Shown piece by piece: positions 13,740-38,841 of a stretch of DNA of 64,000 nucleotides. This DNA is from an uncultured bacterium (GTDB taxonomy: Bacteria; Elusimicrobiota; Elusimicrobia; Elusimicrobiales; Elusimicrobiaceae): the NCBI GenBank assembly GCA_949294095.1, contig CASFFZ010000001.1, forward strand, positions 124,001-188,000, read 5' to 3'. Numbering within the stretch: position 1 is the first letter of the stretch; the number at the start of each line of letters is the position of its first letter. The position numbers and the translations under genes are program-made. The notes beneath the pieces are model-generated. The model had not been told where the DNA came from. It ran no database searches and worked only from the letters and a program-made list of their open reading frames with translations.

Positions 13740-14270
13740 TTATTCTTCTATGACCACCCAACCATTTCCCTGTACCTTTGCATTGTCCCCAAACAAAGAA
13801 AGACATAACTGTTGCCAATGTTTATTTTGTGACTTGTATGCAGGACGGCACTGCCTTAGCACACGCTTTGGCGAAGAATAATAGAAAGTTATTAAAGAAA
13901 TATCTTCATAAGAAGTGGTGTCTTTTCTACGAGAAATTTGTACGTAAGGATTTCCTCCTTCTGTACCAAAAGAGGATTGCATTTGGCCTTCTTTAAAATT
14001 TCCCTTTGAATTCGTTTGATACGTTACATCTAATTCCTCAAAAGAAGAAGCATATTTACCGTTGCTTAAATAATAAAGTTCCTGTGCCTTGGAAATATTG
14101 CGCTCCATTTGTAACATTGGCATCCAACGGCTTTTATCCACCGCTTTCTCGTATTGCGGCAACGCCACCGCCGCCAAGATGCCGATGATTAATACCACCA
14201 CTAACAGCTCTATAAGCGTAAATCCGGCGTTTTTACCGCCGGGGAAGGATTTCTGATAAATTTTTGCCAT
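13740..14270 (-). CDS. pilE: Type IV pilin, copy A
   Basis: 176-aa major-pilin-like protein. Short leader MAKIYQKSFPGGKNAG then the mature start FTLIELLVVVLIIGILAA, cleaved by prepilin peptidase after G16; E5 of the mature pilin is present. A variable globular domain follows with two late cysteines. The first 110 bp are nearly identical to pilin C and close to pilin B. The real start is ATG 14270; an in-frame TTG 6 bp upstream falls in the promoter. No Shine-Dalgarno: the promoter predicts a leaderless mRNA. Confidence 0.93.
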   Translation of the reverse strand: MAKIYQKSFPGGKNAGFTLIELLVVVLIIGILAAVALPQYEKAVDKSRWMPMLQMERNISKAQELYYLSNGKYASSFEELDVTYQTNSKGNFKEGQMQSSFGTEGGNPYVQISRRKDTTSYEDISLITFYYSSPKRVLRQCRPAYKSQNKHWQQLCLSLFGDNAKVQGNGWVVIEE

Positions 14271-14276
14271 ATGCAA

Positions 14277-15025: not shown

Positions 15026-15589
15026 TTATTCGGAAATAAGTTTTTCTACAAAATTTTTGATAATTTCCGCTTTTTCAAAATAATGTTTTTCCCGCGGGAC
15101 GACCAGGCGGTTGGGGTGTTTTTCCCAAATTTTTAAAATTTTATCGTCAATTTCAAACGCCTGCTGCAAGCTTTCGGTGCGGACGTTGGTGGCCTGATAG
15201 AAATCTTTTTCCGGCGGCGGAGAAAGGTGAATGACCGCGTCGTAGCGGGCCAGTTCGGCCTCCAGGGAGCTGTGCATGGAGGTGAAAAAATTCTCCGGGC
15301 CGTACGGCCAGTAAACGGCGCCGTCGATAGACCCGCGGTCGCACACCATTACTTTGGCGTTGGAAGTAACTTCCGCCAGGTGCTCCAGCTGATGCACGGT
15401 ATAGAAAATGATGTTTTGCGCATGCTCAATGTGCACGGGGCTGTTGTCCTTGCGGGGGAAACCGCCGCTGTAAATCAGCGTAGCCGCTTCCTGCACAAGC
15501 GCGATTTTATTGCCAAACGTTTCTTTCAAGATGGAAAGAGCCGTGGTTTTGCCGCCGCTGGGGCCGCCGGTTAAAACGATTTTTTTCAT
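15026..15589 (-). CDS. P-loop ATPase/kinase of the AAA_28 (NadR-like) type, copy 2
   Basis: 187 aa. Walker A GGPSGGKTT at residues 8-16; MVCDRGSIDGAVYW carries the Walker B-like Asp; NVRTESLQQAFEIDDKI resembles the lid with an Arg. The fold resembles NadR/thymidylate-kinase-type nucleoside kinases. It is a tandem paralogue of the next gene upstream (about 65% similar by eye), separated by 3 bp. Substrate unknown. Confidence 0.75.
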   Translation of the reverse strand: MKKIVLTGGPSGGKTTALSILKETFGNKIALVQEAATLIYSGGFPRKDNSPVHIEHAQNIIFYTVHQLEHLAEVTSNAKVMVCDRGSIDGAVYWPYGPENFFTSMHSSLEAELARYDAVIHLSPPPEKDFYQATNVRTESLQQAFEIDDKILKIWEKHPNRLVVPREKHYFEKAEIIKNFVEKLISE

Positions 15590-15592
15590 AAG

Positions 15593-16162
15593 TTATCCTT
15601 TAATGATTTTTTCTACAAAATTTTTGATGACTTCCGCTTTCTCAAAAAAGTGTTCCGTTCCGCCTACGACCAAACGGTTGGGGTGTTTTTCCCAAATTTT
15701 CAGGATTTTGCGGTCAATTTCAAACGCCTGCTGCAGGCTTTCGGTGCGCACATGCGTGGACTGATAAAAAGCCGGGTTGGAAGGCGGCGACAAATGCAGC
15801 ACCGCATCGTAGCGGGCCAGCTCGGCATCCAGCGTGGTGCCCATGCGGGCAAAAAAGTCTTCCACTCCGCCGGGCCAATAGACGGCAGCGTCCACCGTGC
15901 CGCGGTCGCACACGATTAAAGGCGCGTCGGAAGATTCTTCGGCCAAGCTTTCCATTTCCCGCGTCGCATAGAAAATAATCTGTTGGGCGGCTTCAATATG
16001 GGGGCGGCTGTTGTCCTGCCGCGGAAACCCGCCGCTGAAAATCATCGTGGCGGCTTCGCGCACCAATTCTACTTTGGGGCCGAACGTCTCCTTTAAGATA
16101 GAAAGGGCAGTCGTCTTGCCGCTGTTGGGGCCTCCGGTAAGCGCAATCTTTTTATGCTTCAT
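15593..16162 (-). CDS. P-loop ATPase/kinase of the AAA_28 (NadR-like) type, copy 1
   Basis: 189 aa, paralogue of the downstream gene. Walker A GGPNSGKTT at 9-17, IVCDRGTVDAAVYW, and the same VRTESLQQAFEIDRKILKIW block. The first codons overlap the end of the M23 peptidase gene by 11 bp, so the order M23, AAA copy 1, AAA copy 2, SEC-C looks like one operon. What separates the two copies functionally is not evident. Confidence 0.75.
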   Translation of the reverse strand: MKHKKIALTGGPNSGKTTALSILKETFGPKVELVREAATMIFSGGFPRQDNSRPHIEAAQQIIFYATREMESLAEESSDAPLIVCDRGTVDAAVYWPGGVEDFFARMGTTLDAELARYDAVLHLSPPSNPAFYQSTHVRTESLQQAFEIDRKILKIWEKHPNRLVVGGTEHFFEKAEVIKNFVEKIIKG

Positions 16163-23765: not shown

Positions 23766-23790
23766 TCCGGCCGCCCGGCCGGATTTTTTA
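23766..23790 (+). terminator. cyuA terminator
   Basis: TCCGGCCG / CGGCCGGA stem followed by six T. Confidence 0.85.
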
Positions 23791-24519
23791 TTCCCGCGCA
23801 AACGTATACGCCAGCACACGGCGGGCCCCGGCCGCTTTTAAAGCGGCGGCACAGCCTTCCAGCGTGGCGCCGGTGGTGGCCACGTCGTCTATCAGCAAAA
23901 CGGTTTTCCCTTTTACCCATTCGGGCCGGCGGCAGGCAAAGGCGCCCGCCATATTTTGCCGTCTTCCCTCGCGGCCCAGCTTGGTTTGGCTGACGGTGTT
24001 TCGCACCCGCACAAGCGCCTTGGTTTGCACGAGCAGGCCTACCTGCGGCGCAAAAAAGCGTGCCAGCAATTCGCTTTGGTTATATCCGCGCTTGCGCCCG
24101 CGGCGCGGAAAAAGCGGCACCGGCATGACCACTTCGGCTGCGGCCAGTTCGGGATACCGGGCAAAATGCCCGGCCATCAGCCCGCCCATATACCGGGCCA
24201 AATAGTCGGCCCCGGCATATTTAAGCGCGTGCACCAATGCCCGCGAGGGCGTGTTAAACACAAAAGCAGATCGGATCACCCGGCACTTATATGTGCGCTC
24301 CTTACTGCCGCGGCAGGCATAGCAATGTGCGCCGCCCCCTGTAAGCACCGCTCCGCAGCGGCGGCAAATGTGCGGCCCGGGCGTTTTGAGCGCTTGGGTG
24401 CACACGGCGCACAGCGGCTCCTCTCGCCTCCATGGCAGGTCGCAGCCGCAGGCAAAACAAGTGCGCGGGAAGAAAAAATGCAACAGCAGCCGCCAAAGGG
24501 TCGTTAAAAATTTTTTCAT
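23788..24519 (-). CDS. comF: ComF family phosphoribosyltransferase-like protein
   Basis: 243 aa. N-terminal zinc-ribbon-like cysteine pairs (CFACGCDLPW, CAVC, CRRCG, CYACRG) then a PRTase domain with KTVLLIDDVATTGATLEGC, the PRPP-binding loop. ComF proteins help natural transformation in some bacteria; type IV pilus genes elsewhere in the window are consistent with that but do not prove it. Lies 4 bp after the SprA-like gene on the same strand. Confidence 0.9.
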   Translation of the reverse strand: MKKFLTTLWRLLLHFFFPRTCFACGCDLPWRREEPLCAVCTQALKTPGPHICRRCGAVLTGGGAHCYACRGSKERTYKCRVIRSAFVFNTPSRALVHALKYAGADYLARYMGGLMAGHFARYPELAAAEVVMPVPLFPRRGRKRGYNQSELLARFFAPQVGLLVQTKALVRVRNTVSQTKLGREGRRQNMAGAFACRRPEWVKGKTVLLIDDVATTGATLEGCAAALKAAGARRVLAYTFARE

Positions 24520-24523
24520 ACCG

Positions 24524-27500
24524 TCAGAATTGCACCGTTACGTTGGCCGCCACATTGTAGGCCGTATAATCTTCGGTTTCCACATACGCGTGGTTGAGCA
24601 GCGTAAACCCGCCGCCTACGGTAAAGCGCAGGTTTTGCGAAAGTTCATAATCCAGCGAGGTGCTGAAATCAAATTTTTTGTAGTTTTCCTTTACTTCCAC
24701 CGGAGAGCGTTTGTCCGTATACGAAAAAGTGGTATTCCAAATCACGCGGTTGGTGGCGTTGTACATTTTATTGATAAACGGCAGTTTAAAACCGCGCGGG
24801 AGGTTGAAGTCCCAGCGGAGGTTCAGGCTGGGGGTGGTTTCGGTGCTGCTTTCGCTGATCTGGCCCGCCACCAGCCATTTTTCGTGCGACGTGTGCAGCA
24901 GTTTGGGCGTAACACGCATGGAACCGATGTAAAAAGAAGTCTGGGCCGAAATATCGTTATCCTCAATGCGCTCCAAGCTGGTGCCGGCGCGCAAGTCCGT
25001 CTTGTCGGAGTTTTTGCGCGTATAGTTAAGCACCGTATCAAAATAATTAAACAGCATAAACCGCAAGTCCCCCCCGTACTGGGTGGTGTATTGTTCATCC
25101 GTCCCCGGGGTGGTTTGCTCCACCCAGCTGTAGCGCAGTTTTAAGTTGGACGAGCTGAACCAGCGGCCGCCGTAAAAGAATTTTTCCAAGTCGGAAATGG
25201 AAAACGTCATATCCGGCAAGGTCAAGCTGGTGGAGTCATACAGTGTGCCGGTTTGGTCGTTGGTTTGCAGGGTGCGGGTAAAGTTGTTAATCAGCGAAAT
25301 CGTCTTTAACGGGGCGGCGGCGCCTTCCAGGTTGTACTGCGAAAGCGGGCTCCAGCGCTGGGTGGAGGTGAACGTGTCGCGCAAGGTTAAGCTCTTGCGA
25401 TAGCCGTATTCGCCTACGTCTTTTAACGAACTGCGGATCCACAAATCTTTGCGGGAGTCGTAGTCGCTGTCCACGTCGTACCAGGAGTCCGCGTCCTGGA
25501 TGCGGTAACTGGAAGAAATGACAAACGTGTTAAAGAGCTTGCTGTTGGGTAAAATTTCATTTCCGTTTAGCGTCAGCGAGATGCCGCCGTCTGCATTGCG
25601 GTTGATGGTTTTTACTTCCCCCACCCCCACGGTTACCTGCTGCCCGGCGGCGTTAAGCGTTTTGGCCGTCAGGTTGTTGCTTTCCACAGTACTGATGTTG
25701 TAACTGACCGACGGCGCCAGCCATTTGGTAATTTTCCACGTGCTGTTAAAACCGGTGTTCTGGCTCATGGCTTTAGGATAGCTGATATTTTGGGCGGAAG
25801 TTTCCTGATAGGTGGTGCGGTCTTCCTTGCTTTTGCTTAAACTGTAGCTGGGGGTAAAGTTAAAATTATTCGTCGGCTGGTACGTAACCTTCATATTCAT
25901 TTTTTGGGTGTTTTCGTCGGTATTGTAGTAATTGTCAGACTCCAAATGCCGCACCCGGTCGTAATCAATGGACGAGTCGGTAATATGGTACCCGGCCGTA
26001 ATGTTTTTAAACGCACCGGCCGAATGCGTCAGCGTGGCGCCGTAGGTGCGGGCGTCGTCCTTGCGTTTCATGGCGTCGTACTCCACCTGATCTAGGGTAT
26101 ATTCCAAGCCGATCTGCGGGAAATTGTCCTTTTTAAAATCCCCGCGCACCACCGCGTTCTGCCGCTCCACTTTGCCTTTATCCAGCAAGCTGATGGTATT
26201 GTAATCCGTGGTATCCGTTACCAAGGGGGTTACGGTGCTGGAACGGGTTAAATTGGCCTGCATGGGAAATTCTTTAATTTTATCCACTTTCAGGAAGTAT
26301 TCTTCCTGCGTAACTTCCTGATTTTTGGATACGGCCAGCGGCGTTTCAAAATTGCTGTCCTGATACTTATACTTCGCGCCCGCACTGCCCCAGCCGTCCA
26401 GGTTTACCACTACATCTCCCTTATACGCCGTACCTTCCAGCGTAATGGCCTCGGCCAAGTGAATGACATTCAGCCACACTTCGCCCTGGCTGCCCAAAGC
26501 GGTTACCTGCTCCAACACTGCCGTATACGCTTTGCCGTCTTCCAGCGTAACCGCATACGAACCGTCCGCCTGGGCGGAAACGGTTTTTACCGCGCCCGCA
26601 GAAACCATAAAATTTTCATCGCCGTACAGCGCAAGCCCCGGCTGCAAAATGCCGCGGGCAAAAAGGGTTTGCGTGGTATCTGCCTGCGTAAACGTATATG
26701 TATAGCGGCTTTCGGCCTGCACGCCCGTGAACATCAAGCTGACTTCCCGGAAGTTAAGCAGCCCGCCCGGCCCCCGGTGATGCACCACCCGCACGTTGTA
26801 AGAGGGATCCGATATATTTTCAAACGAGTCGGGCACACCGTCCATGTCCGTATCCACCATTCGCAGGGAAATCAGCCGCCAGCCGCGGAAATCGGTGGGT
26901 ACGATAATCTTGTCAAAATTGTCTTCCGTACCCACTTTTAAAAAGAACTCCGTACCGGGCTGGTTTAACGGGCGGGCGCCGCCCTGCTCCATGGCGCCGT
27001 GCAGCAGAAAGCGAAATTCCCGGTGCTGGGTAAAATCCATACTGGAAAAGTTGCGGTTGGCATAGCGTTCGCCGGCCGGATTGTTTTCCGTGCTGTCGTC
27101 CCGCACGGGGGAAAGGCCGATGGTATTGAATTTGATGTTCAGGGCCTGATCCAAGGCGTTGGCCGAACCGGTGGCCTGCTTGTAATTATTTACCGAGCCG
27201 TACAAATAATTAAATACCGTCAGGCCGTCGCCGGTCGTATCGGCGAAAATGGGCTCGTAGTTGGTGTTGTCCACGTTATTAATGCCCGCTACGGAAAAAA
27301 CATCCGGGTCGGTTTCGTTTTGGGCGTTCCACGCCGTGCCGGACAGAGAGACATTGGCAATTTTAATCTGCCCTTTGAGCTTGCCGGCGCGTCTCATTTC
27401 GTCGGTTATTTTAAGTGTAATACGCAGGTGGCGCACGGCCGTCCACTGGGCTTTTTCATCGGTGGAAAGCAACAGCGGCATGGTGTAGGTCGTCCAAGCC

Positions 27501-30178
27501 GTATTGGACGCCGTATTGTTGACCATCCCGTCAATAGACGCCCCCGCAAAACCGAAGTTCCCCTGCGTGGGGATGCTTTCGGCATCATAAACGCCGTTGC
27601 CGTTTAAGTCCTGCGTATCAATGCGTCCGTTGGGCTGGGATTCGGGATTGTAGATGTTGTTTACAAACGGGTTATAGCGTTCTTCCGTGCCGTCCGGGTT
27701 GGTAAACAACCAACCAATATCTTCATTGGGTGCGAGGGTATTGCGGCAGTAAATGTCTTCGGTTTTGGGAACGTTGGTGCCGCATTGGGTGTTCATGCCA
27801 ATGGAAGAATCGGAGTATTCGGAAATGTTTCCGAAGGCAAAGTTGACCTGCGGGCCGTTTGCTTCGCCCAGCATGGTCAGCTCAAAGGAGGTTTTGCTGG
27901 ATAAATCCATCCCGCTTTGACTCAGCGGATAGACGATGGAAACTTCGTCGCGGCCTTCCTCGTCCAAAAACGGCTGCCCGGTGTTGGGGTTTATGGTGGT
28001 GGCCGGAAGCGTGAAATCGTAATTCAACACCAGCACTTGCTGTTTGTCGTTATAATTGGCGATGGAGTGCGGGTTGATTTCCAGCGAGGGCAAATCCTGC
28101 GTATCCCAATGGATAGAGTTTAAGAAAGCGGGTTTTCCGCTGGGGTTGGAAGCGAAAATCCAGTCCCTGAAAATGCGCGAGCCGGCCACCTGCTCGGTGG
28201 CTTCGTTCATACTGTCCACCATGGCGTAGCCAAACAAGTTCTGGTTTTTTTGGCTCTTGGCAATTTCGGCGCTGAAATCCACCGACAAAGGCTCCGCCAG
28301 CCGGATGTCCTTGCCGTTAATATCCGCCCCGTAAACGAGCAAATCTTTCGCGTAGTTGCCTACCTGCGGAACGGTGTTGGGTTTTTCGCCGCTTTCTTTG
28401 AGCATGGTAGCGCCCATGATGATTTTATCAAACAGTTTATAATCCAACCGGCCGCCCATTACCGAGTTGTTGGAGCTGGAGCCGGTGGTCGTGTCGTAGG
28501 TAATGTCAATGACGGAATTTTCCGTAATTTCATCCCCTTTGTAGAAGGTGATAAAACCGGAGGTATAGTCAATATAATAATCGTTGTTGCGCGTGAGGGT
28601 GCGGCCGTTTAGTTTGACGGTCTCGGATTCAATCACGATACCCGACTCTATAAAATACGTCTTCACGGTAGATTCGTACTGAATCTTGAACGTCAGGTTT
28701 TTAGAAGAAGTCGGCGTGGTGCCGTACAGGCCGGCATCGTTGATGCGGTAGGCCAAGTCAAAAATACCGCTGTCAAAATCCACGTCAATATACGTGGGAT
28801 AGGAATAATAGGGGCTGGTAAGCGCCTGGCCGTTGGCGTCTTGCAGCTGCAAAATAAAATTTCCTTTCCCGTTATCCTGCGTAATTTTCTGCGCGCCGAT
28901 GTTGTAATACGTTTTCAGTTCCAGCTTGTTGGCCGTTTCGGTAATCATGGCGGTGCCGGTTTCGATGGATTTATCGTTCTCGGTTTTAATCAGCTTAATC
29001 GTGCCCGGCTTGCCCAGCACATTGCTTAACTGGTTGCCGCGGGTGTCGCGGTAGTCCACGGCGATGACGCTCTCCGCCGTAACGGTGCGTTTGAACGTAA
29101 TAATGCCGCTTGCATAATCTACCGTATAGTCCACGCCGCGCGTCAACAGCTGCCACTTGGCGGGATATTCCGTGCTGCCCAGGGCATCGGTGGCAATGCG
29201 GTCTATCGGCACGTAATCGGAGGAGGTGGAGGAATCGTTGCTGTAGTAGTATATTTCTTCCGTTCCGGGCGAGATGCTGCCCATTACCGTGCGCCACTCA
29301 TCATACGCGGTGCGGTCTACCGGATAGCGGATGCTGCCGCCGTCGTCAATATACGGGCGGACGTTGCCGCCGAACGTCAAATCGTAATAAGTGCGGCGCA
29401 GATAGGAAGTATCCGCCAGCGAAATAATTTCCGACACGCTGCTGCCGATAAATTGCTTTTGTTTGCTGGAACCTTTGGTTTGCGAACCGATTAAATACAA
29501 ATTGGCGTTCTTGTGCTGCAAGTGCATTTTGGCGCCGAACAACTGTTTTTGATAGGCGATAAACTCCGTCTCCGGCAGCGATAAATTAATATCCCCAAAT
29601 TCGGCCAGCTGTACCAATTCCCCCGGTTTGCCGCGGTAAGCCACCGAAATGGTTTTTTCCTCTTCGCGCTGGTCGTCGTAGTCAATATCCACAAACACGC
29701 GTTCCAAAATTTTACCCTGCATTTTAAGCTGCATTTCCTGCTGCATTTCAAAGGTGCTGGTGTTGCGTTTATCAATATCGTTATTGGAATCCTGTTTGTA
29801 TTTTTGAGCCGCCATTTGAAACCCCAGCACATACCGCCCGGTTAAAGCGATGCTGGTGCCGTAGAGCGGCAGGGAGAGCGTAGGGTTTAAAAGCGTTAAA
29901 TCGGGGATCGGCTCCGGTTCGTTGTCCAGCTTATACGATCCTTCCACCGAGGTAACCGCTTGGCGCCAGAACTCGTTGGTAAATTTAAGCAGCTGGGCGT
30001 CGTCCGGCGGGTCTTGAATTGCGAGGGCGGCTTCTTCTTTTTCGGCTTGGTCTTGGGCAAAAATGTCGTATTGGTCACGGTCTACCAGGGTGTACGGCAA
30101 CGATTCGGCGCCGGCCGGAGGGGCGGCGACGAATTGCAAAATAAGCAGCAGGGCCACAGGCAGCCGCAGCATTTTCAT
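24524..30178 (-). CDS. Giant SprA-like outer-membrane beta-barrel protein
   Basis: 1884 aa with a signal peptide (about 1-24, ending AGAES). Residues ~90-400 resemble the SprA/Sov N-terminal region: an Asp/Glu-rich YDDQREEE stretch, then EFGDINLSLPETEF, YQKQLFGAKMHLQ and IGSQTKGSSKQKQF, followed by GVDYTVDYASGIITF. The middle holds aspartate-rich loops (DTDMDGVPDSFE, DLNGNGVYD) that could bind calcium. The C-terminal ~700 residues alternate as beta-strands and end in an aromatic residue (VAANVTVQF), like an outer-membrane barrel. SprA is the type IX secretion translocon of Bacteroidota; no other T9SS gene is seen here. Bacteroidota SprA is longer (about 2400 aa). Downstream comF is 4 bp away. 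Confidence 0.6.
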   Translation of the reverse strand: MKMLRLPVALLLILQFVAAPPAGAESLPYTLVDRDQYDIFAQDQAEKEEAALAIQDPPDDAQLLKFTNEFWRQAVTSVEGSYKLDNEPEPIPDLTLLNPTLSLPLYGTSIALTGRYVLGFQMAAQKYKQDSNNDIDKRNTSTFEMQQEMQLKMQGKILERVFVDIDYDDQREEEKTISVAYRGKPGELVQLAEFGDINLSLPETEFIAYQKQLFGAKMHLQHKNANLYLIGSQTKGSSKQKQFIGSSVSEIISLADTSYLRRTYYDLTFGGNVRPYIDDGGSIRYPVDRTAYDEWRTVMGSISPGTEEIYYYSNDSSTSSDYVPIDRIATDALGSTEYPAKWQLLTRGVDYTVDYASGIITFKRTVTAESVIAVDYRDTRGNQLSNVLGKPGTIKLIKTENDKSIETGTAMITETANKLELKTYYNIGAQKITQDNGKGNFILQLQDANGQALTSPYYSYPTYIDVDFDSGIFDLAYRINDAGLYGTTPTSSKNLTFKIQYESTVKTYFIESGIVIESETVKLNGRTLTRNNDYYIDYTSGFITFYKGDEITENSVIDITYDTTTGSSSNNSVMGGRLDYKLFDKIIMGATMLKESGEKPNTVPQVGNYAKDLLVYGADINGKDIRLAEPLSVDFSAEIAKSQKNQNLFGYAMVDSMNEATEQVAGSRIFRDWIFASNPSGKPAFLNSIHWDTQDLPSLEINPHSIANYNDKQQVLVLNYDFTLPATTINPNTGQPFLDEEGRDEVSIVYPLSQSGMDLSSKTSFELTMLGEANGPQVNFAFGNISEYSDSSIGMNTQCGTNVPKTEDIYCRNTLAPNEDIGWLFTNPDGTEERYNPFVNNIYNPESQPNGRIDTQDLNGNGVYDAESIPTQGNFGFAGASIDGMVNNTASNTAWTTYTMPLLLSTDEKAQWTAVRHLRITLKITDEMRRAGKLKGQIKIANVSLSGTAWNAQNETDPDVFSVAGINNVDNTNYEPIFADTTGDGLTVFNYLYGSVNNYKQATGSANALDQALNIKFNTIGLSPVRDDSTENNPAGERYANRNFSSMDFTQHREFRFLLHGAMEQGGARPLNQPGTEFFLKVGTEDNFDKIIVPTDFRGWRLISLRMVDTDMDGVPDSFENISDPSYNVRVVHHRGPGGLLNFREVSLMFTGVQAESRYTYTFTQADTTQTLFARGILQPGLALYGDENFMVSAGAVKTVSAQADGSYAVTLEDGKAYTAVLEQVTALGSQGEVWLNVIHLAEAITLEGTAYKGDVVVNLDGWGSAGAKYKYQDSNFETPLAVSKNQEVTQEEYFLKVDKIKEFPMQANLTRSSTVTPLVTDTTDYNTISLLDKGKVERQNAVVRGDFKKDNFPQIGLEYTLDQVEYDAMKRKDDARTYGATLTHSAGAFKNITAGYHITDSSIDYDRVRHLESDNYYNTDENTQKMNMKVTYQPTNNFNFTPSYSLSKSKEDRTTYQETSAQNISYPKAMSQNTGFNSTWKITKWLAPSVSYNISTVESNNLTAKTLNAAGQQVTVGVGEVKTINRNADGGISLTLNGNEILPNSKLFNTFVISSSYRIQDADSWYDVDSDYDSRKDLWIRSSLKDVGEYGYRKSLTLRDTFTSTQRWSPLSQYNLEGAAAPLKTISLINNFTRTLQTNDQTGTLYDSTSLTLPDMTFSISDLEKFFYGGRWFSSSNLKLRYSWVEQTTPGTDEQYTTQYGGDLRFMLFNYFDTVLNYTRKNSDKTDLRAGTSLERIEDNDISAQTSFYIGSMRVTPKLLHTSHEKWLVAGQISESSTETTPSLNLRWDFNLPRGFKLPFINKMYNATNRVIWNTTFSYTDKRSPVEVKENYKKFDFSTSLDYELSQNLRFTVGGGFTLLNHAYVETEDYTAYNVAANVTVQF

Positions 30179-30304: not shown

Positions 30305-31480
30305 TTACGAAATGCCGACGGGAATCGTCCTGTCCACAAACCGGTGTTTCACAATTTCAAATTCCAGCACGTCCCCCGGCCGCACGTCCGGGAACAGTTT
30401 TTCCGCATGTTCCGGGTCAAAAGGCCCCGGATATTTAGGCAAATACACTTTTTGCAACAATGTGCCCGAAGCGTCAAAATGATAGACCCAGCCGATGTTT
30501 TCCTCCGCTTGCAGCTGCACAAATTTGCGCCCGTATACTTTAAATACCATTGGCGGCAGGCGAAGGCCTTGCTCCACGCTGCCCACCAGCCACTCCAAGG
30601 TTTGGCGGGCATTCACGGCAAACACCAGCCCGCGCTCCGGATCGTGCCCGCTGTAAATCCCGACCACCCGGCCCTGCGCGTCTAAAACGGGGCTGCCGCA
30701 CAAACCGTTAAACTCTTCCGACACGTCCGGACTGTCCATCACAATTTTAATTCCCTGCGCAAGCGTTACTTTTAACTCATCGATGCGGGCAAATCCTTCG
30801 GAAGCATAGGGGCTGCCCCACACCACCAATTCATTTCCCTTCTGCGGAAGGGAGGGCGCCAATTTTAAAGGGTGTACATACGATTGCACCTCTTGCGGCA
30901 ACGCAATGATGGCGGCATCCGGCGCATTAATGCCAAACGAGCCTGCCGCATTGACCACCAACCCATTATACAGAACCGGCTCGCCCTGTTCGGGATAAAT
31001 TCTTACCGCCACGGTATTTCCCCGCCGCCCTACCACATGATACGATACCACCGCATACAAACGGCCCGAGCCCGCCCGCACCACAAATCCGCTGCCCATC
31101 AGTTCCCCGCTGGCTCTGCCCACCACTTCCACCAAAGACGAACGAATATGTTTTTCAGTTTGTGCCAACGTGGGCTGTGCCTGCTGGGCCTGCTGGGCCA
31201 AGGCGGCACGAATTCGTCGGTTTACGATGGCCTCCGTGCGCATAGCCGCCTGCCGGCGGGCTGCAATTCCCGCTCGGTCGGCCGCGCACCCCTTTGCCGC
31301 CTGAACGGCGCCCGCGGCGGAACACATTTTTTCCGGCGCGTAGCGCAGGCCGTGCAGCAGGTTTTTTTCTATGGGGGTACTGCGCAATCCGCCGCTTAGG
31401 ATATTTTTAACCGGCACTTTTTGCGCATACGAAAATCCGCCCAAGCATAAACACAAAAAAAGGAAAATATACTTCTTCAT
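30305..31480 (-). CDS. Secreted trypsin-fold protease with Cys at the nucleophile position
   Basis: 391 aa. Signal peptide 1-19 (ends GFSYAQ). A Gln/Ala-rich helical segment (about 55-110) precedes a chymotrypsin-like domain (about 112-300): candidate His148 in VVSYHVV, Asp188 in NAPDAAIIAL, and GLCGSPVLD where Cys261 occupies the position of the catalytic Ser of GDSGGP. A beta-rich C-terminal region of ~80 residues follows. The start at 31480 (MKKYIFLFL) was chosen for the signal peptide; the open frame extends upstream without support. Exported, substrate unknown; transcribed just before the SprA-like gene but separated by a terminator. Confidence 0.75.
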   Translation of the reverse strand: MKKYIFLFLCLCLGGFSYAQKVPVKNILSGGLRSTPIEKNLLHGLRYAPEKMCSAAGAVQAAKGCAADRAGIAARRQAAMRTEAIVNRRIRAALAQQAQQAQPTLAQTEKHIRSSLVEVVGRASGELMGSGFVVRAGSGRLYAVVSYHVVGRRGNTVAVRIYPEQGEPVLYNGLVVNAAGSFGINAPDAAIIALPQEVQSYVHPLKLAPSLPQKGNELVVWGSPYASEGFARIDELKVTLAQGIKIVMDSPDVSEEFNGLCGSPVLDAQGRVVGIYSGHDPERGLVFAVNARQTLEWLVGSVEQGLRLPPMVFKVYGRKFVQLQAEENIGWVYHFDASGTLLQKVYLPKYPGPFDPEHAEKLFPDVRPGDVLEFEIVKHRFVDRTIPVGIS

Positions 31481-31604
31481 GCTTTTATTATATCCGCTCG
31501 GCCCGGCTCTCGCCAGAGCCAAAAGGCCTATATAGGGGCTGGGCCCCGCTACGGCAAGCGATTTCTTCAGCGGGTCGGTTTGATATTTTGTTAGAATAAT
31601 ATAT

Positions 31605-32699
31605 ATGCGTGTCAGCATCTTTACCAAATACATTGCAAAAAGTCTCCTGACGTTTTTTTTCGGCGTACTGGGCGTGCTGACTTTTGTTATTTTCATGAAT
31701 CAGTTCATCCGCATCCTGGACATGGCCATGACGTACGGCACCAGTTTCGGCTGGATTGTTTCTTCCCTTTTAAACGTGTTGCCCAATGTGTTTTGCTTAA
31801 GTGCGCCGATGGCTTTTCAAATTGCCATTTTGCTGACGCTGACCAACATGAGCGAACACGGCGAGCTGATTGCATTGCGGGCGGCCGGGTTTTCGTTTAA
31901 AGAGATCATCCGCCCCCTTCTTATTTGTGCCCTGGGGTTAACCGTTGTGCTGTTTGTCATGCAAAACTGGCTTACCCCCCGCAGTTACAAACGCCTCTTA
32001 GACCGCCGCAGCGAAGCCCGAAGCAAAATTACCAAAGTAAATTTGGAACCGAAAACATTTTTGAATTTGGGAGAATGGGACTTGTATCTGGAAAACCTGG
32101 ATAAAGACACCGACGTGGCCCATCAAATCCATTTAATTAAAAAAGAAGACAGCGGCGCCCTGAGCACCAAAGTAAACGCCTCTTCGGGCAAAGTGATTTT
32201 AACCAATACCGCCATCGGCCTGCAGCTCCAAGACGGCCAAATGCAGCGGCTGGATGCCCAAGACCCCTCTTCCTTCATTGCCGCGAATTTTGACGAGTAT
32301 ATTATGAGCATTTCCCTCCTAAAGGCTCAATACCGCCGCTTGCGCGTGGGGGAAATGTCCACCACCAAACTGCTTAGACGCATGCGCCAAATGCCCTTGG
32401 ATGCCGAAACCGTCAACGAATACCGCACCGAAATCAGCATGCGAAACGTGCTGGCCTTCTCCCCGATTGTATTGCTGTTTGTCAGCTGCCCGATCGGATT
32501 TTCGTTTGGGAAAAGAACCAATAAGGGCTGGGGAATGCTTTTTAGCGTGATCATCATTTTTACTTTTTATTTATTAATGACGCTGGGCCTCTCTTTAGGG
32601 AAAAAATACGGTTGGATTGCCTACCCCGGCCCATGGCTGCCGATTGTAGCCGGCATTTTTGCAGCCCGCTACCTGTGGAAAAAGAGGTTAAACATCTAA
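31605..32699 (+). CDS. lptF: LPS export permease LptF-like (YjgP/YjgQ family)
   Basis: 364 aa. TM helices at about 10-30, 55-80, 95-120 and three near 285-360, with a periplasmic beta-jellyroll between; the family layout of LptF/LptG. N-terminus FTKYIAKSLLTFFFGVLGV is typical. With LptB2 it extracts LPS from the inner membrane and feeds the Lpt bridge. TAGAAT with TGT in front ends 7 nt before the ATG. Followed immediately by its partner. Confidence 0.88.
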   Translation: MRVSIFTKYIAKSLLTFFFGVLGVLTFVIFMNQFIRILDMAMTYGTSFGWIVSSLLNVLPNVFCLSAPMAFQIAILLTLTNMSEHGELIALRAAGFSFKEIIRPLLICALGLTVVLFVMQNWLTPRSYKRLLDRRSEARSKITKVNLEPKTFLNLGEWDLYLENLDKDTDVAHQIHLIKKEDSGALSTKVNASSGKVILTNTAIGLQLQDGQMQRLDAQDPSSFIAANFDEYIMSISLLKAQYRRLRVGEMSTTKLLRRMRQMPLDAETVNEYRTEISMRNVLAFSPIVLLFVSCPIGFSFGKRTNKGWGMLFSVIIIFTFYLLMTLGLSLGKKYGWIAYPGPWLPIVAGIFAARYLWKKRLNI

Positions 32700-32700
32700 T

Positions 32701-33786
32701 ATGCGGATTTATTTCTATATCGCCCGAAAATTCTGGGGGCCTTTTTTCTTTGCGCTGGGCGTGTTTACGGCGCTGGTGGTGCTGGGCGATACCTTTGAAA
32801 AAATGAAAAACCTGGGCAACGGCGTAACCACCATGACGGATTTGCTGGCCTACTCGCTGGCTACTTTTCCCAACTGGCTGGCCACCATTATGCCGGTTGC
32901 CTGCCTGCTGGGCGCCATTTCCGTCATCTCCGAAATGGTGGCCAACGGCGAATGGACGGCTTGCGTGGCCAGCGGCTTTGCTCCGCGGCAATTGTTCAAG
33001 CCCGTCATCCTCTGCATTTTGGGCGTGGTGCTGGGCACGATGGCGCTGCAGGAATTTGTCATCCCGCCGTTAAATGCCAAGTCCGAACGCATTTACAATA
33101 CCCGCATTAACCCCTCGGAACATCCCTTTAACCCCGATGCGGAACAGGACGTTATTTTAAAAATTTCTCCCAACCAAATGTTGTTTGCCAAAGAAGTGAA
33201 CCTTAAAGAGGGCACCATGAACCGCGTTTCCCTGGATACCTACGACGCCGGATGGAACATCGCCAACCAAATTGTAGCCGACCAAATGGTGTGGAACCCG
33301 GATACCAAAAGCTGGCTTTTTTCCAAGGGCATTCAGCGCGTGTTCATAGACCCGATGGACACCACGGAAGAATCTTTTGATACGGCCGATTCGCCCGTGC
33401 GCTTGGATCCGTCCGACATGGCCATAGACCGCACCGATAACAAACTCCTCAGCATCCGCGAGCTGTACAAACGCATTCATTTTTTTAAGAAAAGCGGCCT
33501 TTCCTCCTATGCGGCGCAAACGATGCTTCAATCCAAGCTGGCCACCCCGTTTGTTACGCTTATTATGTGCCTGCTCGGCATGCCTTTTGCCATCAGCGTG
33601 CGGCGCAAAAGCAAAATTTTAAACATCATTGCTTCGCTGGTAATCGCTTTTACCTTTTGGTGGCTGATTACGATGTTTACCTCTATCGGCGAAAACGGGT
33701 ACATCAACCCCTATTTGGCCGGCTGGGGCCCCGTGCTGGTGTTTGCGGTAGTCGTATTTTTTGAATTTAAATGGCTTAAGTTGTAA
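32701..33786 (+). CDS. lptG: LPS export permease LptG-like (YjgP/YjgQ family)
   Basis: 361 aa with the same topology as the gene 1 bp upstream: TM segments at 12-35, 50-75, 95-120, and three at about 275-360 around a periplasmic domain. N-terminus YIARKFWGPFFFALGVFTAL. Assigned as LptG by order; sequence alone does not separate F from G firmly. The pair shows that the organism exports LPS or a related glycolipid and has an outer membrane. Confidence 0.87.
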   Translation: MRIYFYIARKFWGPFFFALGVFTALVVLGDTFEKMKNLGNGVTTMTDLLAYSLATFPNWLATIMPVACLLGAISVISEMVANGEWTACVASGFAPRQLFKPVILCILGVVLGTMALQEFVIPPLNAKSERIYNTRINPSEHPFNPDAEQDVILKISPNQMLFAKEVNLKEGTMNRVSLDTYDAGWNIANQIVADQMVWNPDTKSWLFSKGIQRVFIDPMDTTEESFDTADSPVRLDPSDMAIDRTDNKLLSIRELYKRIHFFKKSGLSSYAAQTMLQSKLATPFVTLIMCLLGMPFAISVRRKSKILNIIASLVIAFTFWWLITMFTSIGENGYINPYLAGWGPVLVFAVVVFFEFKWLKL

Positions 33787-38279: not shown

Positions 38280-38310
38280 AAAAACCCCGGTTTTAAACCG
38301 GGGTTTTTCA
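38280..38310. terminator. Terminator between pssA and pilin B
   Basis: AAACCCCGGTTT / AAACCGGGGTTT hairpin with T-run; convergent genes share it. Confidence 0.85.
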
Positions 38311-38835
38311 TTTAATAACACAATAATTGAAACCATTTTCTCCTACCAAAAACCAACTATTCCCACATAAGGCCATACACGGTATTTTTGACTCTTCCGA
38401 TTTTGATACGCAATTCATTTGGCCGATATAATTATAATAAATGTAATAATTCCTAATGGCTGAAGAGTCCGCCCCATTGCGAATCGCCACCGCTTCAAAT
38501 CCTTCCTGCGTATTGGGTTGAACTTTAATATAGTATGAAAAATTTTTTAGACGTATGGTTTTTTCATCTATTTTTTCGCCGTTTGGAATTACATCCAACT
38601 CCTCTAGGCTTTGGGCAACTTGTCCATTTGCCATCTTATAGAGCTGCATACTTTGCACAAGGTTACGCAAATTGGCAAGCGCTTCCACGGAACGGGATTT
38701 TTCTACCGCTTTCTCATACTGAGGCAAAGCCGTCGCGGCTAAAATACCAATAATTAGAACTACCACTAATAGTTCTATAAGGGTAAATCCGGCATTTTCG
38801 CCGCCAACGAATGATTTTTGATAAATTTCATACAT
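38308..38835 (-). CDS. pilE: Type IV pilin, copy B
   Basis: 175 aa. Leader MYEIYQKSFVGGENAG then mature FTLIELLVVVLIIGILAA, E5 present. The globular domain differs from copies A and C after about residue 45, but shares the ANG..A.SLEELDV block and late cysteines. Most diverged of the three at the 5' end. Start is ATG 38835, predicted leaderless. Confidence 0.93.
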   Translation of the reverse strand: MYEIYQKSFVGGENAGFTLIELLVVVLIIGILAATALPQYEKAVEKSRSVEALANLRNLVQSMQLYKMANGQVAQSLEELDVIPNGEKIDEKTIRLKNFSYYIKVQPNTQEGFEAVAIRNGADSSAIRNYYIYYNYIGQMNCVSKSEESKIPCMALCGNSWFLVGENGFNYCVIK

Positions 38836-38841
38836 AAGCAA

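What the first reader, a model, noticed from the sequence alone, without database searches (positions are those of the whole stretch)
24524..30178. SprA-like giant outer-membrane protein outside Bacteroidota
The protein has the signal peptide, N-terminal SLPETEF/QLFGAKMHLQ/GSQTKG motifs and long barrel-like C-terminus of SprA/Sov, the translocon of type IX secretion. If confirmed, this lineage may have a T9SS or an ancestral, simpler translocon. It is 500 residues shorter than Bacteroidota SprA, and no por/gld genes are in the window. No protein here has an obvious T9SS C-terminal domain, so the cargo is open.
Basis: partly seen in the sequence, partly recalled or inferred. Interest (0 to 1): 0.65.

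Follow-up and report, generated by a model that had tools for sequence, protein, structure and literature searches.

The report
T9SS translocon protein in Elusimicrobiota
[quoted passage not shown] its genome and relatives also hold the matching carrier and cargo proteins, which suggests that this secretion machine, possibly without its usual motor, is widespread in a phylum where the open literature searched here does not describe it.

Summary
Window 24524-30178 (-) encodes an 1884-residue secreted outer-membrane protein that is a full-length SprA/Sov homologue. It matches the NCBIfam SprA model (E 4.6e-31, but 107 bits against an equivalog cut-off of 200) and not Pfam SprA_N. A profile of its relatives finds only SprA in the PDB. 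AlphaFold2 models of its two overlapping halves match SprA first in Foldseek (E 9e-41 and 3e-24) and together align to SprA residues 167-2388. The genome belongs to a gut genus of Elusimicrobiota; SprA is present in 167 of 177 good genomes sampled across the phylum. The rest of a type IX export core lies elsewhere in the genome: a PorV-family carrier (93 bits, cut-off 90) and, directly upstream, a large exported protein ending in a diverged T9SS C-terminal domain, split here by contig ends but intact in congeners. Environmental relatives hold 9-34 PorV proteins each and many type A CTD proteins, with PorV genes directly downstream of CTD genes. GldL, GldM and a C25 sortase domain were not found, but no positive control was available. 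Best reading: a T9SS-type translocon outside the FCB group, apparently simplified, with carriers paired to cargo. No function was tested.

The parts
24524..30178 (-). SprA/Sov-type translocon gene, 1884 aa
30107..30178 (-). Sec signal peptide, residues 1-24 (read directly from the sequence; no predictor was run)
   Evidence: a hydrophobic N-terminus is conserved in the relatives
29384..29854 (-). Most conserved SprA block, residues 109-265 (matches positions 98-254 of TIGR04189); contains SLPETEF, QLFGAK, GSQTKG
28241..29857 (-). N-terminal half: barrel strands at residues about 108-255 and 571-646, with soluble parts between them (residues about 108-646)
   Evidence: AlphaFold2 model; aligned to SprA
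27332..28204 (-). Jelly-roll domain resembling carbohydrate-binding modules, residues about 659-949
   Evidence: Z 9-11 to CBM families besides SprA; CBM_11 in 5 of 22 relatives
24527..26488 (-). C-terminal barrel region, residues 1231-1884: 28 predicted strands of 10 or more residues, ending in QF
   Evidence: AlphaFold2 model; SprA match
23788..24519 (-). ComF-like phosphoribosyltransferase, conserved downstream neighbour; not thought to be part of the system
   Evidence: Pfam; found in 16 of 20 loci of the other family
31605..32699 (+). LptF/LptG permease, conserved divergent neighbour
   Evidence: Pfam; found in 19 of 20 loci of the other family
32701..33786 (+). second LptF/LptG permease
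   Evidence: Pfam; found in 18 of 20 loci of the other family

Best explanation
The protein is the outer-membrane export pore (SprA/Sov type) of a type IX-like secretion system of Elusimicrobiota. Cargo proteins cross the inner membrane by Sec (inferred from their signal peptides). A C-terminal beta-sandwich domain (CTD) then takes them through the SprA barrel, where a PorV-family carrier binds the CTD and moves it to the cell surface. In this genome the likely main client is a large exported protein encoded directly upstream of porV, beside Tad pilus genes. In environmental relatives many PorV paralogues lie next to their own CTD protein, so carriers appear to be cargo-specific. Shown: homology and predicted fold of the pore, presence of PorV-family and CTD proteins, their gene pairing, phylum-wide spread of the pore. 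Inferred: that they work together, the order of steps, the surface destination. Unknown: the energy source, since no GldL/GldM was found.
For: Pore: TIGR04189 E 4.6e-31; a profile of 22 relatives hits only SprA (6h3i/6h3j, E 1.3e-15) in the PDB, in three collinear stretches; AlphaFold2 halves (mean pLDDT 80 and 82) rank the four SprA structures first with a wide gap to the next entry (E 9.3e-41 to 3e-29 against 1.5e-5; 3.3e-24 to 8e-22 against 1.6e-7), aligned to SprA 167-1496 and 976-2388. Spread: 61 of 61 order relatives, 213 of 248 and 167 of 177 good genomes in the phylum. Carrier: own PorV 93.2 bits against cut-off 90; PorV family in 59 of 61 relatives, 9-34 copies in the environmental family; the Tad-linked PorV in 34 of 34 good genomes of the genus. 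Cargo: CTDs over the TIGR04183 cut-off in all 24 environmental genomes; the 8 best-scoring PorV loci all have an upstream same-strand CTD ORF, and all 10 gut-genus loci read have an upstream protein (1460-1794 aa) whose C-terminus matches a CTD profile built from the other family; independent match to the PorZ CTD, E 5.6e-8. Own genome: last 23 residues of that cargo on C8 just before porV, its N-terminal part at the end of C3.
Against: The SprA match is below the NCBIfam equivalog cut-off (107 of 200 bits; relatives 100-129) and Pfam SprA_N does not match any of 22 relatives. GldM, GldL and a C25 sortase domain were not found in 61 genomes, although nothing rang in the controls either. The gut-genus CTD is diverged and TIGR04183 finds none in the own genome. 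The own cargo gene is not contiguous in the assembly. sprA is not linked to porV. Each half was folded alone, so the closed barrel itself was not modelled. No experiment was done.
Confidence: 0.82

Rival explanations
1. A complete T9SS with a diverged GldL/GldM motor and GldK/GldN ring that the Bacteroidota-trained models cannot see.
For: The absence searches had no positive control; SprA itself is so diverged that Pfam SprA_N misses it, so other parts could be missed too.
Against: No match at E 1e-3 to GldM in 61 genomes of two families; the single GldL match (E 2e-4, L168) lies in a RmuC-like coiled-coil ORF. PorV and CTD models did work across the same genomes.
Confidence: 0.3
2. A SprA-fold outer-membrane protein with a different job, for example lipopolysaccharide or lipid handling, as its conserved neighbours lptF/lptG hint.
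For: lptF, lptG and comF flank sprA in both families, whereas porV and CTD genes do not.
Against: SprA is known only as a protein translocon, and this phylum also holds PorV and CTD proteins in paired genes. LptF/LptG are general LPS export permeases and the gene order may simply be old.
Confidence: 0.08
3. Contamination or recent transfer from a Bacteroidota gut bacterium.
For: The genome is a multi-contig, incomplete assembly whose relatives are gut MAGs, where Bacteroidota abound.
Against: Same gene in 61 of 61 order relatives and 69 of 76 genera of the phylum, including groundwater genomes; conserved flanks; only 18% and 14% identity to Flavobacterium SprA in the structural alignments.
Confidence: 0.01

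Closest known systems
SprA of Flavobacterium johnsoniae (PDB 6H3I, 6H3J, 8GL6, 8GL8) and Sov of Porphyromonas gingivalis
   Same: Fold over nearly the full length, conserved N-terminal block, many-stranded barrel, partner PorV and CTD cargo present in the same genome.
   Different: About 520 residues shorter, 14-18% identical in the structural alignments, below the SprA equivalog cut-off, in a phylum outside Bacteroidota.
Reduced T9SS gene sets of Bacteroidetes incertae sedis (PMC7323717)
   Same: That paper lists Sov, PorV, PorU and others there, without PorK, PorL, PorM or PorN. So a set without the motor and ring genes has been reported before.
   Different: Here also no C25 sortase domain was found, and PorV is multiplied and paired with cargo genes in relatives.
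PorP/SprF-like shuttles linked to type B CTD cargo in F. johnsoniae (PMC12618676)
   Same: Carrier genes linked to the genes of their own cargo.
   Different: There, type A CTDs all use one PorV. Here the paired carriers belong to the PorV/PorQ family and the cargo has type A-like CTDs.

Membership tests
SprA/Sov translocon | Sequence match to the SprA family | tested here: met
   TIGR04189 E 4.6e-31; profile match only to SprA in the PDB, E 1.3e-15
SprA/Sov translocon | Score above the NCBIfam equivalog cut-off | tested here: not met
   107 bits against 200; five relatives 100-129. So called a SprA-type homologue, not a SprA equivalog
SprA/Sov translocon | Pfam SprA_N domain | tested here: not met
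   no Pfam SprA_N match in the protein or in 22 relatives; a genome search with PF14349 also found none, but its controls did not ring either
SprA/Sov translocon | SprA fold over the whole length | tested here: met
   two overlapping AlphaFold2 halves, SprA ranked 1-4 by Foldseek in both, covering SprA 167-2388
SprA/Sov translocon | One closed barrel of about 36 strands | tested here: inconclusive
   28 long strands in the C-terminal part and 8 in the N-terminal part were predicted, but the halves were folded separately; the figure of 36 for SprA is from memory of the 2018 structure paper
Type IX secretion system | PorV-family carrier | tested here: met
   own genome C8:44449-45414, NF033709 93.2 bits, cut-off 90
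Type IX secretion system | CTD-bearing exported cargo | tested here: met
   met in relatives; in the own genome only the last 23 and the N-terminal residues are assembled
Type IX secretion system | GldL/GldM (PorL/PorM) motor | tested here: inconclusive
   no credible match in 61 genomes, but no positive control rang
Type IX secretion system | GldK/GldN ring, SprE/PorW, PorT | not tested
Type IX secretion system | PorU sortase (C25 peptidase domain) | tested here: inconclusive
   no PF01364 match in 61 genomes, no positive control; the listed NF033707 matches cover only its C-terminal, CTD-containing part
Type IX secretion system | Secretion depends on SprA and the CTD | not testable with these tools
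   needs a cultured strain

The most novel reading that the evidence does not exclude
Elusimicrobiota have an ancient T9SS that works without the GldLM motor and without a C25 sortase. Each cargo has its own PorV carrier, and the energy for release comes from another source. Some cargo reaches giant size (an ORF of 17,603 codons ending in a CTD-like domain).
Probability: 0.3. Interest if true: 0.8.

Novelty: new variant of a known kind. Interest (0 to 1): 0.62.

Why it matters
T9SS is described as specific to Bacteroidota or the Fibrobacteres-Bacteroidetes-Chlorobi group. A phylum-wide pore with carriers and CTD cargo in Elusimicrobiota would move the origin or spread of the system, and would make a question testable: is the rotary motor needed for type 9 export, or was it added later? 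It also names likely surface proteins for a little-known gut genus and explains why automatic annotation overlooks the pore (below the curated cut-off, no Pfam domain).

Tried and rejected
Single-sequence search of the PDB found nothing real; the profile was needed. Pfam SprA_N in the own genome: none, controls silent. The single GldL match (L168) is a RmuC-like coiled coil and was rejected. PorU model matches were rejected as sortase evidence because the listed ones cover only the C-terminal, CTD-containing part. Literature: SprA + T9SS + Elusimicrobia none; 'type IX secretion' + Elusimicrobi gave five papers. In the three I searched inside, no passage shown links a T9SS to Elusimicrobiota (for the first only 12 of 15 places were shown, none of them the T9SS mention). 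T9SS + Elusimicrobi gave three, the third searched with the same outcome. PorV + Elusimicrobi gave one pig-gut paper, not opened. Only open-access text was searched. In the VIA second look at the C-terminal half, generic barrels score as high as or higher than SprA (16.6 against 14.4), but over far fewer residues; Foldseek separates them clearly. I counted strands of 10 or more residues outside the middle domain by hand, so 36 is approximate.

Full report
Observation. The motifs lie in the best conserved block of the family; many of their residues are invariant among 22 sequences at 35-88% identity to this one. The NCBIfam model for SprA/Sov matches at E 4.6e-31 in three stretches, but at 107 bits against a curated cut-off of 200; five relatives score 100-129. 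Pfam SprA_N does not match. The protein is thus a clear homologue that the curated name-giving threshold would miss.

Organism. Named relatives up to 91% identical are Elusimicrobiales MAGs, and named gut relatives include Candidatus Avelusimicrobium. The genome is 1.48 Mb in 13 contigs, 92.7% complete. All 80 best loci in a scan of 84,980 species came from contigs titled Elusimicrobi- or from unnamed bacteria; that search used close peptide patterns and does not test other phyla.

Fold. The protein exceeds the folding limit, so residues 24-1165 and 735-1884 were predicted apart, with 58 aligned sequences each. Mean pLDDT is 80 and 82. In both cases the four SprA structures are the top Foldseek hits, far ahead of the rest: 9.3e-41 to 3.2e-29, next 1.5e-5; 3.3e-24 to 8e-22, next 1.6e-7. 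Structural alignment covers SprA 167-1496 (842-875 residues, 18% identity, Z 13.6-14.8 for the three best chains) and 976-2388 (820-844 residues, 14%, Z 13.8-14.4). The C-terminal part alone has 28 long predicted strands. The closed barrel itself was not modelled. A jelly-roll domain at residues about 659-949 resembles carbohydrate-binding modules.

Distribution. Present in 61 of 61 genomes of the order. In a spread of 248 genomes of the phylum, 213 have it, and 167 of 177 with good completeness; most listed absences fall in one family, many in one genus of small genomes. Gene order lptF-lptG / sprA-comF is kept between the two families (lptF 19, lptG 18, comF 16 of 20 loci).

Partners. PorV family: 59 of 61 genomes, 9-34 copies in each of the 24 environmental-family genomes. 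In the own genome one clear PorV at C8:44449-45414, 93.2 bits over the cut-off of 90, next to Tad/Flp-type pilus genes (secretin, T2SSE ATPase, T2SSF). CTDs: TIGR04183 over its cut-off in all 24 environmental genomes. The eight best-scoring PorV loci all have a CTD ORF upstream on the same strand (six of the eight overlap or supply seeds of that CTD profile, and in those the CTD is also visible by eye, while L137 and L138 are independent). In the gut genus, ten of ten porV loci read have an upstream protein (1460-1794 aa) with a signal peptide-like start and a diverged CTD that the environmental-family profile recognises, with an independent match to the PorZ CTD. In the own genome this cargo gene is cut: its last 23 residues stand before porV at the end of C8 and its first part at the end of C3. 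That the two ends are one gene is inferred from relatives.

What was not found. GldM, GldL and a C25 peptidase gave no credible match in 61 genomes. The controls held no genome in which these rang, so absence is suggested, not shown. GldK, GldN, SprE and PorT were not tested.

Mechanism. From F. johnsoniae work, the CTD is bound in the SprA pore by PorV loops, and the authors deduce that release of the carrier-cargo complex needs energy from the motor (PMC10994853). By homology the Elusimicrobiota pore and carriers would do the same first steps. If GldLM is truly missing, the energy step must differ. Pairing of PorV paralogues with their own cargo resembles the logic of PorP/SprF shuttles (PMC12618676), but with PorV-family proteins.

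Comparison with the literature. Reviews confine T9SS to Bacteroidota or the FCB group. Gene sets without motor and ring were reported in Bacteroidetes incertae sedis (PMC7323717), so lack of PorKLMN alone is not new. Searches of the held open-access library for T9SS, PorV or type IX secretion together with Elusimicrobiota returned a handful of papers. In the four I searched inside no passage shown describes the system there; not every place was shown in the first, and the others were left unopened. Subscription papers and database annotation may know more.

Verdict. A SprA-type translocon of a type IX-like system in Elusimicrobiota: identity well supported, function inferred, motor question open.

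Noticed in passing
L182+L188+L189 (an environmental relative, G037:C11:39360-92171, minus strand): An ORF of 17,603 codons ends in a CTD-like domain at its very C-terminus; five other relatives have long ORFs, open over the 16-17 kb fetched, with a similar end. Assembly of such a gene was not checked against reads.
   Followed up: partly
L147, L169-L178: The single PorV plus CTD cargo pair of the gut genus sits beside Tad/Flp-type pilus genes, and in many MAGs the contig breaks just upstream of porV, inside or near the cargo gene.
   Followed up: partly
environmental-family genomes: Many such genomes have a CTD in a short open frame of about 180-200 codons, possibly a small conserved CTD protein.
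   Followed up: no
family f12, genus g41: SprA is missing or left only as weak matches in many small genomes of this genus, which looks like reductive loss.
   Followed up: no
window 13740-14276 and 38308-38841 (-): Two separate pilin-like ORFs with nearly the same GFTLIELLVVVLIIGILAA start lie in the window without other pilus genes seen beside them.
   Followed up: no
window 30305-31696 (-): Trypsin-like peptidase gene between sprA and lptF, absent at this place in at least one congener (L162) and in the other family; its true start is probably internal.
   Followed up: no
window 15026-15589 and 15593-16162 (-): Tandem pair of similar small ORFs with a P-loop-like GGPxxGKTTAL motif.
   Followed up: no
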